This document shows positions 5,706-9,425 of a stretch of DNA of 64,000 nucleotides, one piece after another. A program made the position numbers and the translations under genes. Below the pieces are notes generated by a model. It was not told the DNA's origin, did no database searches, and saw only the letters and a list, made by a program, of their open reading frames with translations. The stretch is from Whalleya microplaca (lineage: Eukaryota > Ascomycota > Sordariomycetes > Xylariales > Xylariaceae): contig MU385715.1 in assembly GCA_022497155.1 (NCBI GenBank), forward strand, positions 1,178,001 through 1,242,000, written 5' to 3'. Position 1 is the stretch's first letter, and every line of letters starts with the position of its first letter.

Positions 5706-8700
5706 ATGTCAGGCTCCATGCTCATGCAGACGGATTTCGATCCCCGGACACCGGGATGGAATCCGAACCGTTTCTGGGCCTACATGTTCAACCCCCAGAA
5801 CCCCCAGTACGAGGAGTTCCGGCAATGGCGCGCCTTCCACGCCCGCGGCGACATCCGCTGCGACCTGTGCGTCGTCTTCCGCCTCCGCTGCGACCCCATC
5901 GGCGGCTGCACCAACTGCATGGCTCGCCCGGAGCGGTGCACCGTCAACACGTACACGATCTTCCCCTATCCGGCTCCGCGGATGGCGCCGACGCCGCCGA
6001 TGCAGCCCCAGCCGCAGCCTTACGCGCAGCCGCAGCCTTTCGTGCAGCCGCAACCGCAGCCTTTCGCGCCGCCGCAGCCGCAGCCTTTCGGCGTGTATGG
6101 CTACCCCGGCTACCCCCCGGTCCCGGGTTATCCTGCGGGCCCCCCCTCGGGATCTGATGTGCCTGGGTTTGGCCCGTTCACGGGCAGCCCTTCATATGTA
6201 GGTCCCCCAGTTGTAGGCCCCCCAGTTGTAGGCCCCCAAGTTGTAGGCCCCCAAGTTGTAGGTCCCTCAGTTGCAGGCCCCCCAGTTGTAGGCCCCTCCG
6301 TTGTAGGTCCCTCAGCTGTAGGTCCCTCGGTTCCGGGCCCGGCTCCTGGAGGTACTCCGGACTGGTTGGCTGCATTTGAAGGTACCGACGATGTGGGTGC
6401 TACACCTGGTAGTCCATCAGATTTCTTGCCTACAGGTGATTCTCCTCCAGATTCAGGGTCAGCAGTTGCAGGCCCTTCAGATAAAGGCAAAGGAGTGGCA
6501 GGTCCTTCAGACAAAGGTAAAGGTAAAGCAGTTACACGTTCTATTCGAGGTGCGAATCTTTCAGATCCACAAGTTGCAGCTCCTTCAGTCGTTGCCTTAC
6601 GCGGAGATGACAGGTGTAACGCGTGCAGGAAATACAACCAAGAGACTTGCGACGCTCAGATCGTCGCCGAGCCTTTCTACGGCTGTACCTTTTGTCGGAG
6701 AATCGATGTTCCGTGTATAGACGGGCTCAACGTGCTCGCCGACCGAGTTGACGGGTATGTTCCCCCCCTTTGTTGTGATAACTGTATGACAGTGCACAAT
6801 ATCCGCGCTTGCTCGTGGAGACAGCCAGGGGGCGATTATACGAAGCCTTGCGACCAATGCCAAGCGACGGGCACTGAATGTGTTTACCTAAAACTTTCGC
6901 TCAATGTACTGTCCTCTGTGGGATGCACCCACTTTAACAGGACAGTGAATATGATGCCACGTACGGTATATCCGATAAACCGTCCCGAGAAAGCACGCGA
7001 GGTACATGGTAGCACGTTCCGCACCCATGACCTTTACGAGGCCTCCCTTGACAGACGCTCTATAAGAAGATGTCTTCTCTGCGAATTCCGCTGCGCCGGA
7101 AACTATAGAAGAGATGAGGTGTGCGACCCCGGAAAGGAAAATGGTATGGGATGTGATCAATGTTCACGCTGGGGTGTTATCTGCGTCTTCCAGGGCAAGG
7201 CGTATCCGCCACGGCAGCGCCGGGGCAGAAAAGCGATAATGATCGCATGTGACCAGTGCAAGGAACACGGTCGAAACTGCGACAGGAAGCGCCCGTGCGA
7301 CAGCTGTGTGAACAACGGCGACTGGGCGAACTGCGCAGGCTCCCGCGTCGCCTGTTTCTGGCGAGGGATTCCGGGCGAAGACCTTCCGTACTATTACACG
7401 TCGAAAGGCTACGGTCCCGATGGCGTCGACGATCCGCCCAGAAGGGGTCAGCCCAAAGACATGCCGCCCAATTACCACCACGTATGGCTCCGTAGCATTG
7501 GGATTGAGCCCACAGAGGAAAATGCTCCAAAACTTCAGGGTCCAGTCGTCCTAGCTCGGAGAAGGCCGCAACGCGGGAGGGGAAACCAGAACTCCCCTAC
7601 ACGGGTAACCAGAGGTCCCAGGACAGTGACTGCAGGGCCTTCGGGGGCTTCACAGGGAGCAAATCCAGGCCCGGCATCAGGTCCATCGCCAGTGCCGGGG
7701 CCATCTTCAGCTTCGGGGCTATCGCCAGCGCCGGGGCCATCGCAAGCGTCAACGCCGGGAGCTGTACCAAATACGGGGACTTCGCCGGGTCCAGACACAG
7801 CGCGGCCATCAGTAGAAGCGGGAGGCATAGTTGGGGAAATAGGTATGGATCTAGGGCTGGGTCTCAATGTAGATCCAAACCTAGGTGACTTCCCTCTGCC
7901 GGAAGGTTACATTCCAACTTGGAGTCCCGGCCCCTTCGCCTTTGGCGATGATCCTCCCCCCGCAGACCAGCCTGCCGCGACGGGACCAGCACCCTCCCCC
8001 CCAGGCGCAGGAGTCGGTACGGTGCCGTACGAAGAAATACGCGCCAAGTTCGACGTGCTGATGGCGTCTGAGATGCCGGTGGACGAGATCAGGCTTCACA
8101 ACAGCTTCTCCTGGGAGCAATTGTTGGCCATGGATATAGTAGATCAGGAAACTGAGGCCCCAACAATCCCAGACCCGATGCTCCTGGCCGATTACACTGA
8201 AATATGGGAGATGGCGAAAGCGTGTGCAAACCAGAACGTCAATATCGGTCTAGCCACGTTTCGGTGGCTCTTGCGACGGGATCTAAGTAATCAGGTCGAA
8301 TATGCAAACTCGCCAGCTGCTCAGGTCATCCGAAACTTCATCCAGGAGCGCCTAAATGCATTCAATCAGACCCCCTTACCCGTGGTCCCAATCGTATACC
8401 CAGAAGGCATCAATATGGCTATCATGGAGACGCTGAATCCCTCAATGGAGCCTATCCGCAACAGCACGTATAGGCCCAGGGAGCGACCTTCCTCCCCAGG
8501 ACCCATAAACCCACAGTACCGTCTCTATAATCCAAACATCCCCATCTACGACAGCGCCAGCCTGGGCTACAACCCCGACCACCCGGAGTTCATCCACCAA
8601 GACCTCCTCGTCCGCCCGATCGCTCCCCACCCGAACGCCATGCCCGAGCCTGTCCTAGGCACCATCCCGTTCAATCGCATCCTGAACGATGCTCAAAGAA

Positions 8701-9425
8701 CCCAGGGCCCGACCATGGCGTGCTTAGCAGTTCCGCCCAACGCGCTCGGCACGCATTGTGGCAATTATACATCACGGGTCTGCGAAGACACGTGCCACTC
8801 GGACGCCGGGTGTCCGATCTGCGACGACTGCGAGGCGCGCTCGCGCGCCACCTTCCTCGACCAGATCAAGGGCGTGCTGGAGTCGCTGCGCGCGTACGCG
8901 TGCGCGCAGTGCGCCGGCTCGGTGGCGCAGGACCCAGGCTCGTACGCGGGCACCGGCAACCGCGTGTACGGGTTCGAGCAGGGCGCGGTCGAGTGCGCGG
9001 CGCCGAACCCGCGGCTGGGCGCGGCCACCTGGGGCGGGTTCGTGGGCGCCCCGCTGCCGATGAGCGGCTGCGGCTGCGCCACCAAGCTCCTCGGCCGCCG
9101 GGTCTGCAGTCCACATCGCCTGCAGCACCTGCTCAACCTCAAGCAGGCCGCCGACCGCATGCACGCCTGGGTCAAGGGCGTCTACGGGCGCAAGGTGTGC
9201 TTCTTCTGCCGCGAGCGCGCCGGCGCCGACGCCTACGGCGACAACGCTGGCCCTGTCTTCGGCGATGCGCCCCCGCCTGTGCCCAAGGTGTTCGCGTGTA
9301 TGGGCTGCCACGAGATCGTCGTGGCGCAGAACGAGATCCCGGGGCCTGAGGCCTTTGGGCTCATGCCTCAACCTCCGCCGGTCGATCTTGGTTCCATGGA
9401 CCCGGCTCTGTTGACTTTCCAGTAG
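5706..9425 (+). CDS. multi-zinc-cluster protein (five Zn2Cys6-like modules)
   Basis: This is an intronless frame of 1239 residues with a good start context (GAAAATGTC). I recognise no complete known family. Five cysteine modules resemble fungal Zn2Cys6 clusters: residues 52-78 (exact C-x2-C-x6-C-x5-C-x2-C-x6-C), 304-337, 357-392, 456-493 and 515-543. Modules 1 and 5 are closest to canonical spacing. Module 5 has basic residues around its cysteines; the others lack the usual Lys/Arg run. Between modules 1 and 2 lie Pro-Gln repeats (about 99-128), Val-Val-Gly-Pro repeats (about 165-212) and a GPSDKGKG duplication (about 256-273). A Pro/Ser/Ala-rich spacer covers about 640-710. The C-terminal part (about 1006-1200) is again cysteine-rich with several C-x2-C pairs. 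Its 3' end is visibly GC-rich. It could be an unusual nuclear regulator or a metal-binding scaffold; the function is unknown. Confidence 0.8.
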   Translation: MSGSMLMQTDFDPRTPGWNPNRFWAYMFNPQNPQYEEFRQWRAFHARGDIRCDLCVVFRLRCDPIGGCTNCMARPERCTVNTYTIFPYPAPRMAPTPPMQPQPQPYAQPQPFVQPQPQPFAPPQPQPFGVYGYPGYPPVPGYPAGPPSGSDVPGFGPFTGSPSYVGPPVVGPPVVGPQVVGPQVVGPSVAGPPVVGPSVVGPSAVGPSVPGPAPGGTPDWLAAFEGTDDVGATPGSPSDFLPTGDSPPDSGSAVAGPSDKGKGVAGPSDKGKGKAVTRSIRGANLSDPQVAAPSVVALRGDDRCNACRKYNQETCDAQIVAEPFYGCTFCRRIDVPCIDGLNVLADRVDGYVPPLCCDNCMTVHNIRACSWRQPGGDYTKPCDQCQATGTECVYLKLSLNVLSSVGCTHFNRTVNMMPRTVYPINRPEKAREVHGSTFRTHDLYEASLDRRSIRRCLLCEFRCAGNYRRDEVCDPGKENGMGCDQCSRWGVICVFQGKAYPPRQRRGRKAIMIACDQCKEHGRNCDRKRPCDSCVNNGDWANCAGSRVACFWRGIPGEDLPYYYTSKGYGPDGVDDPPRRGQPKDMPPNYHHVWLRSIGIEPTEENAPKLQGPVVLARRRPQRGRGNQNSPTRVTRGPRTVTAGPSGASQGANPGPASGPSPVPGPSSASGLSPAPGPSQASTPGAVPNTGTSPGPDTARPSVEAGGIVGEIGMDLGLGLNVDPNLGDFPLPEGYIPTWSPGPFAFGDDPPPADQPAATGPAPSPPGAGVGTVPYEEIRAKFDVLMASEMPVDEIRLHNSFSWEQLLAMDIVDQETEAPTIPDPMLLADYTEIWEMAKACANQNVNIGLATFRWLLRRDLSNQVEYANSPAAQVIRNFIQERLNAFNQTPLPVVPIVYPEGINMAIMETLNPSMEPIRNSTYRPRERPSSPGPINPQYRLYNPNIPIYDSASLGYNPDHPEFIHQDLLVRPIAPHPNAMPEPVLGTIPFNRILNDAQRTQGPTMACLAVPPNALGTHCGNYTSRVCEDTCHSDAGCPICDDCEARSRATFLDQIKGVLESLRAYACAQCAGSVAQDPGSYAGTGNRVYGFEQGAVECAAPNPRLGAATWGGFVGAPLPMSGCGCATKLLGRRVCSPHRLQHLLNLKQAADRMHAWVKGVYGRKVCFFCRERAGADAYGDNAGPVFGDAPPPVPKVFACMGCHEIVVAQNEIPGPEAFGLMPQPPPVDLGSMDPALLTFQ
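6197..6340 (+). repeat. 15-bp coding repeat (Val-Val-Gly-Pro-Pro/Gln/Ser)
   Basis: About ten copies of a GTTGTAGGCCCCCCA-like unit encode the VVGPx pentapeptide array of the multi-zinc-cluster protein. The copies differ mainly at the last codon and at silent sites. Similar units continue more loosely to about 6500 (GPSDKGKG). Confidence 0.9.

What the first reader, a model, noticed from the sequence alone, without database searches (positions are those of the whole stretch)
5706..9425. One protein with five successive Zn2Cys6-like modules
Fungal Zn2Cys6 regulators nearly always carry a single cluster. Here module 1 (residues 52-78) has the exact C-x2-C-x6-C-x5-C-x2-C-x6-C spacing, and four further modules (304-337, 357-392, 456-493, 515-543) keep the C-x2-C pairs with looser spacing. 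Only module 5 has strong flanking basic residues. This could be a multi-site DNA or chromatin binder, a metal store or a new scaffold family. I see no described family that fits the whole protein.
Basis: partly seen in the sequence, partly recalled or inferred. Interest (0 to 1): 0.8.

Follow-up and report, generated by a model that had tools for sequence, protein, structure and literature searches.

The report
Fungal protein with paired zinc clusters
A fungus makes a large protein that strings together five cysteine-rich, zinc-cluster-like modules, four of which look like two copies of the same pair, ahead of a second zinc-rich domain; what it does is unknown, but it is a real and unusual member of a small fungal protein family.

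Summary
In detail: one 1239-codon frame (5706-9425 +) holds five six-cysteine modules at exactly the stated residues; 20,000 shuffles of the protein never gave more than one. The genome is Whalleya microplaca (Xylariales). New here: (1) The modules are not five equal units: module 2 is specifically module-4-like and module 3 specifically module-5-like (0 of 1000 cysteine-fixed shuffles each), so it is one N-terminal cluster plus two copies of an A-B pair. (2) NCBI's model of this gene splices out a 186-nt in-frame 'intron' that holds module 3; the module's family resemblance says it is coding, or optionally spliced. (3) The family's core is a C-terminal domain with 14 Cys and 2 His conserved over 14 aligned sequences; the database tags it PF28513. 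Of 13 relatives, 8 show one A-B pair. Module 5 is a true Zn2Cys6 relative (Pho7, E 2.5e-4), but the Gal4 Lys18 position is Lys/Arg in 0 of 10 members, against 28 of 29 high-scoring clusters of this genome. I read it as a nuclear, multivalent zinc protein; DNA reader or chromatin/protein scaffold remains open. New variant of a known kind.

The parts
5706..9425 (+). Coding frame of the five-module protein, 1239 aa, read without introns
   Evidence: NCBI model P0001 is the same frame minus 62 codons
5859..5939 (+). Module 1, residues 52-78, canonical Zn2Cys6 spacing, Arg at the Gal4 Lys18 position by its place in the motif; stands apart from the pairs
   Evidence: hhalign 67.1% to 28 own-genome Zn2Cys6 clusters; no clear likeness beyond its Cys to any of three profiles
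5958..6605 (+). Pro/Gly-rich linker, residues 85-300, with a 15-bp minisatellite at 6197-6326 (VGPxx repeat)
6615..6716 (+). Module 2, residues 304-337, A-type (module-4-like), first half of pair 1
   Evidence: 22.3 bits to the A-type profile vs 6.1 +- 2.5 in Cys-fixed shuffles, 0 of 1000; AF2 model, low confidence, matched GAL4, PPR1, Leu3
6774..6881 (+). Module 3, residues 357-392, B-type (module-5-like), second half of pair 1
   Evidence: 28.1 bits to the B-type profile vs 9.2 +- 3.2, 0 of 1000; 27.1 bits to own-genome Zn2Cys6, 0 of 1000; same spacing in Dactylonectria P0005
6755..6940 (+). 186-nt stretch that the deposited model treats as an intron (GTATGT...AACAG), in frame, no stop; holds module 3
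7071..7184 (+). Module 4, residues 456-493, A-type, first half of pair 2
   Evidence: 35.8 bits to A-type profile, 0 of 1000 shuffles; five of its six Cys columns kept in 11 of 11 ungapped sequences, the sixth in 10 of 11
7248..7334 (+). Module 5, residues 515-543, B-type, second half of pair 2; true Zn2Cys6 relative
7353..7481 (+). Conserved tail of pair 2, residues 550-592 (extra Cys550, C-F-x-R-G ... G-Y-G-P-x-G-V)
   Evidence: Cys550 kept in 12 of 12 ungapped sequences; alignment A4
8094..8213 (+). Acidic and hydrophobic stretch, residues 797-836, possible activation region
   Evidence: ad hoc composition score reached in 0 of 200 shuffles of this protein; not so in the paralogue (105 of 200)
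8655..9329 (+). C-terminal zinc-rich domain, residues 984-1208; 14 Cys + 2 His conserved; family core
   Evidence: AF2 pTM 0.72, pLDDT 69.9; no PDB match

Best explanation
It is an intracellular, probably nuclear, multivalent zinc protein of a small fungal family. Shown by sequence: five six-Cys modules; four of them are two copies of an A-B two-cluster unit that 8 of 13 relatives show once; module 5 is homologous to Zn2Cys6 clusters; a C-terminal domain keeps 14 Cys and 2 His. Inferred: each module binds two zinc ions and the C-terminal domain about four (16 ligands), so about 14 zinc per chain; the clusters fold as small docking pads on flexible Pro/Gly linkers; the duplicated pair raises the number of contacts that one chain makes with its partner, DNA or chromatin; the C-terminal domain does the family's common job (protein contact or dimer formation). 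Because the Gal4-type base-reading lysine is replaced in module 5 and the modules' net charge is near zero, contacts are not of the Gal4 kind; if DNA is bound it is by a monomeric, Pho7-like mode helped by the basic RQRRGRK stretch, otherwise the partner is a protein.
For: Module count far above chance. M2 to A-type and M3 to B-type profiles with cysteines held fixed, 0 of 1000 shuffles each, while the crossed comparisons give 145 and 61 of 1000; spacer within each pair 19 and 21 residues, 22 in the paralogue and 23 and 27 in P0005. Module 5 to Pho7, E 2.5e-4. hhalign to 28 own-genome clusters (counted): M5 97.0, M3 88.7, M4 67.6, M1 67.1, M2 30.7, against 1.1-6.9 for four Cys-rich control stretches of the C-terminal domain. 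C-terminal ligands: all 16 kept in every ungapped sequence, with two single exceptions (one Ser, one Asn), at mean pairwise identity 40%. Lys18 position Lys/Arg in 28 of 29 own-genome clusters, in 0 of 10 family module-5 copies; net charge mean +4.2 against 0 to +2. A second long form with five modules, Dactylonectria P0005.
Confidence: 0.6

Rival explanations
1. A sequence-specific transcription factor in which the clusters read DNA one after another, each in the monomeric manner of Pho7, with the acidic stretch 797-836 as activation region.
For: Best PDB relatives of the family profile are DNA-binding domains (Pho7, Put3, Hap1). Pho7 binds DNA as a monomer over 14 bp (PMC10910108, passage) without Lys18 (PMC5559640, passage). 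Basic RQRRGRK next to module 5. Acidic/hydrophobic stretch, 0 of 200 shuffles. M1 has Arg at the Lys18 place (read from the sequence).
Against: Net charge of modules -1 to +1 in this protein, against mean +4.2 for own-genome clusters; counted by eye, the Pho7 segment is about +4. No Fungal_trans domain in the Pfam scan. The acidic stretch is not shared by the paralogue (105 of 200) and weak in P0005 (26 of 200).
Confidence: 0.35
2. A protein-protein or chromatin scaffold: the clusters are structural pads that bind protein partners and never touch DNA bases.
For: Loss of the base-reading lysine with Gly in 8 of 10 copies, near-neutral charge; a large conserved core of other kind at the C-terminus; conserved C-F-x-R-G...G-Y-G-P tail after module 5.
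Against: Nearest structures are DNA binders; no partner known.
Confidence: 0.35
3. Module 3 is not protein at all: the deposited intron is real and the mature protein has four modules.
For: Good splice sites GTATGT...CAG; the deposited model has it spliced, and I cannot see whether RNA reads stood behind that model.
Against: Module 3 matches the B-type profile with 0 of 1000 Cys-fixed shuffles, aligns with module c of P0005 at identical Cys spacing, carries no stop in 62 codons, and has no CTRAY branch motif, the only YTRAY lying 8 nt from the 3' end.
Confidence: 0.12
4. A metallothionein-like metal store.
For: 52 Cys in all.
Against: 4.2% Cys over 1239 aa; the modules are typed, with likeness beyond their Cys, and the C-terminal domain keeps His ligands.
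Confidence: 0.04

Closest known systems
Zn2Cys6 binuclear cluster (Pfam PF00172); nearest structure S. pombe Pho7 (6o19, 6e33)
   Same: Module 5 (and M1) have canonical spacing; family profile matches Pho7 at 2.5e-4 including the R-P-C segment; in the low-confidence AF2 model several CxxC pairs sit at the start of short helices (my mapping).
   Different: Several clusters in one chain, arranged as A-B pairs; M2-M4 have longer first loops; no Fungal_trans domain; near-neutral charge; Lys18 position not Lys/Arg in module 5.
PF28513 (precomputed tag on 14 of 14 sequences found; name not visible here)
   Same: The deposited model of this same gene carries the tag. The tag also sits on P0004, P0011 and P0014, whose deposited models lack the modules, so it lies in the C-terminal part.
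   Different: Of 13 aligned relatives, 8 show a single A-B pair near the N-terminus, P0012 the A module only, P0004, P0011 and P0014 none as deposited, P0005 five modules; this protein has two pairs and an extra N-terminal cluster.
Paralogue in the same genome, C29 (L012:3782-5773, NCBI F5B20DRAFT_591387)
   Same: Modules 4+5 40% identical over 141 columns, C-terminal half 32% over 421 columns.
   Different: 663 aa, one pair, no M1-M3, no long Pro/Gly linker.
Dactylonectria macrodidyma EDB81DRAFT_330224 (P0005, Hypocreales)
   Same: Five six-Cys modules in 1026 aa, then the same C-terminal domain; M3 and M5 spacing identical.
   Different: M1 and its first module do not align; no long linker between modules 1 and 2 (24 residues against 225).

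Membership tests
Zn2Cys6 cluster (PF00172) | CX2CX6CX5-12CX2CX6-8C spacing, modules 1 and 5 | tested here: met
   motif as printed in PMC6471507 (passage)
Zn2Cys6 cluster (PF00172) | Same spacing, modules 2, 3 and 4 | tested here: not met
   first loop x7, x8, x13
Zn2Cys6 cluster (PF00172) | Pfam gathering score (21 bits) for the whole protein | tested here: not met
   18.6 bits, E 0.0021; 8 of 14 aligned family sequences match at E <= 1, best 4.8e-6; P0003 and P0008 carry the Pfam tag
Zn2Cys6 cluster (PF00172) | Homology beyond the Cys pattern, modules 3 and 5 | tested here: met
   27.1 and 30.8 bits to own-genome cluster profile, 0 of 1000 Cys-fixed shuffles each; Pho7 2.5e-4 at module 5
Zn2Cys6 cluster (PF00172) | Homology beyond the Cys pattern, modules 1, 2 and 4 | tested here: inconclusive
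   75, 60 and 208 of 1000 shuffles reach the real score; hhalign 67.1, 30.7 and 67.6 against controls of 1.1-6.9
Zn2Cys6 cluster (PF00172) | Gal4-like two-helix fold | tested here: inconclusive
Zn2Cys6 cluster (PF00172) | Two zinc ions per cluster | not testable with these tools
   needs metal analysis
Zn2Cys6 transcription factor of the Gal4 kind | Lys/Arg at the Lys18 position (module 5) | tested here: not met
   0 of 10 family copies, 28 of 29 own-genome clusters
Zn2Cys6 transcription factor of the Gal4 kind | Fungal_trans / middle homology region | tested here: not met
   only Zn_clus is listed at E <= 10 in the Pfam scan
Zn2Cys6 transcription factor of the Gal4 kind | DNA binding | not testable with these tools
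   needs a binding assay
PF28513 | Model match of this protein | tested here: met
PF28513-type C-terminal domain | 14 Cys and 2 His in register | tested here: met
   all 16 present in the window protein; columns complete in ungapped sequences but for one Ser and one Asn
Metallothionein | Short, very Cys-rich protein (recalled) | tested here: not met
   52 Cys in 1239 aa

The most novel reading that the evidence does not exclude
Fungi have evolved a 'polydactyl' form of the Zn2Cys6 cluster: a two-cluster A-B unit, duplicated in tandem, that reads a long composite DNA or chromatin target with one chain instead of with a dimer, as arrays of C2H2 fingers do; the in-frame optional intron that holds module 3 lets the cell switch between arrays with two full pairs and with one and a half.
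Probability: 0.17. Interest if true: 0.75.

Novelty: new variant of a known kind. Interest (0 to 1): 0.48.

Why it matters
Zn2Cys6 clusters define the largest class of fungal-specific regulators and, as I recall, are nearly always met once per protein. A family that pairs them, duplicates the pair and drops the base-reading lysine would show that the fold can serve as a repeatable building block, like C2H2 fingers, and perhaps for another purpose than reading CGG triplets. It also shows a gene-model error (or an optional intron) that hides a module from anyone using the deposited protein.
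Full report
What is there. One frame, 5706-9425 on the + strand, codes for 1239 aa without interruption. M1 and M5 fit the printed motif, M2-M4 have longer first loops (motif from a passage of PMC6471507).

Where it is. The deposited protein P0001 (Whalleya microplaca, F5B20DRAFT_595593) equals this frame minus residues 351-412 (checked letter by letter), and the contig length given for the paralogue's deposited protein equals that of our contig C29 (569,531). W. microplaca is in the Xylariales. The neighbours that Pfam names are ordinary: a Ras GTPase upstream, a trypsin-like protein and an amino acid permease downstream, a single-cluster regulator at 21468.

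The intron question. The deposited model removes 186 nt, 6755-6940, with standard splice sites, in frame and without a stop; no CTRAY branch motif is present and the only YTRAY lies 8 nt from the end. This stretch holds module 3. With its cysteines held fixed, module 3 scores 28.1 bits on a profile of module 5 from relatives (shuffles 9.2 +- 3.2, 0 of 1000) and 27.1 on a profile of own-genome Zn2Cys6 clusters (0 of 1000), and has the same spacing as the third module of Dactylonectria P0005. An intron would not look so. I conclude that it is coding, at least in part of the transcripts; whether RNA reads stood behind the deposited intron I cannot see.

The array is paired. Profiles of A-type (module 4, 9 sequences) and B-type (module 5, 8 sequences) were built from relatives, the C29 paralogue included, without the window protein and P0005 (counts). 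Shuffles that reach the real score, of 1000: M2 A 0, B 145; M3 A 61, B 0; M4 A 0, B 31; M5 A 111, B 0; M1 A 270, B 67. The M2-M3 stretch as a whole scores 42.1 bits on the pair profile (8 sequences), against a maximum of 29.7 in 500 Cys-fixed shuffles; two C-terminal Cys-rich stretches used as controls score like their shuffles (367 and 188 of 500 reach them). An M3-M4 stretch also scores (46.2), as expected since it holds an A module itself. So the protein holds two A-B pairs, and M1 stands alone. P0005 shows the same for its last pair (d: A 2 of 1000; e: B 0 of 1000, A 4 of 1000); its b-c stretch reaches 25.6 bits against a shuffle maximum of 23.6, but a, b and c do not resolve one by one.

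The family. Three protein searches gave 14 sequences, two of them the deposited models of the two Whalleya genes; the others are 5 Daldinia, 2 Hypoxylon, 2 Biscogniauxia, 1 Camillea, 1 Dactylonectria and 1 unnamed fragment. All 14 carry the tag PF28513.1. Of the 13 relatives aligned with the window protein (A4), 8 have one full pair, P0012 has the A module only, P0004, P0011 and P0014 have none as deposited, and P0005 has five modules. Several deposited models look incomplete, so module counts are lower bounds. The shared core is C-terminal: 14 Cys and 2 His, all kept in ungapped sequences apart from one Ser and one Asn, at 40% mean pairwise identity.

Kinship with Zn2Cys6. The family profile finds Pho7 (2.5e-4), then Put3, Hap1/Cyp1 and CBF3B at weaker scores, always at module 5. 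Profile comparison (hhalign) with 28 own-genome clusters (counted): M5 97.0, M3 88.7, M4 67.6, M1 67.1, M2 30.7; four control stretches 1.1-6.9. M3 aligns over its second half; M2 over 14 columns and out of register. With cysteines fixed, the own-genome cluster profile singles out M3 and M5 (0 of 1000 each), not M1 (75), M2 (60) or M4 (208). So kinship of M2 and M4 with Zn2Cys6 is probable, through their pairing and Cys order, but not shown. AF2 on residues 291-600 with 12 sequences is poor overall; the part with module 2 reaches pLDDT 62-75 and the listed matches are GAL4, PPR1 and Leu3, while plain Foldseek gave one row at E 4.8, a CBF3 entry.

How it works. Of the 30 best-scoring of 133 own-genome matches, 29 gave a clean cluster; the Lys18 position is Lys or Arg in 28 of 29 (His in one), and their net charge averages +4.2 (range 1 to 8). 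In 10 family module-5 copies it is Gly in 8, His in 1, Asn in 1, and net charge is 0 to +2. Gal4 Lys18 contacts guanines of CGG; Pho7 has Asn there, yet binds DNA, and as a monomer (PMC5559640, PMC10910108, passages). So Gal4-type reading is unlikely, Pho7-type reading is possible, and a protein or chromatin scaffold is about equally likely. No signal peptide is evident by eye; basic stretches lie before M4, between M4 and M5 and at about 618-625, which suits a nuclear place. With an ad hoc score for acidic/hydrophobic stretches on 14 family sequences and 3 controls, residues 797-836 stand out in this protein (0 of 200 shuffles); the paralogue (105 of 200) and P0005 (26 of 200) do not, P0010 does in part (6 of 200, at another place), and the three controls give 64, 33 and 106 of 200.

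Verdict. Real, unusual and in part overlooked by annotation; a new variant of a known kind. The paired architecture and the hidden module are the new points; function needs experiments.

Noticed in passing
G000:C28:544606-544881 (L024, L027): One 264-aa open frame holds two canonical Zn2Cys6 clusters in tandem, a plain two-cluster protein in the same genome.
   Followed up: partly
L012:3782-5773: The deposited model of the paralogue (P0002) starts 52 codons later than the open frame and so loses the first half of its module 4.
   Followed up: partly
window 6197-6326: 15-bp minisatellite, 8.7 copies, coding a Val-Gly-Pro repeat in the linker between M1 and M2; likely length-variable.
   Followed up: no
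window 9479-9553: 18-bp tandem repeat, 4.2 copies, just after the stop codon.
   Followed up: no
window 37368-38354: Frame with DUF7779, which I recall from fungal NLR-like receptors.
   Followed up: no
window 50350-61636: Cytochrome P450 in two frames, flavin amine oxidase and NmrA-like gene, perhaps part of a metabolic cluster.
   Followed up: no
P0003, P0010, P0012, P0013: Deposited models lack conserved Cys stretches that their relatives keep, perhaps wrong introns.
   Followed up: no
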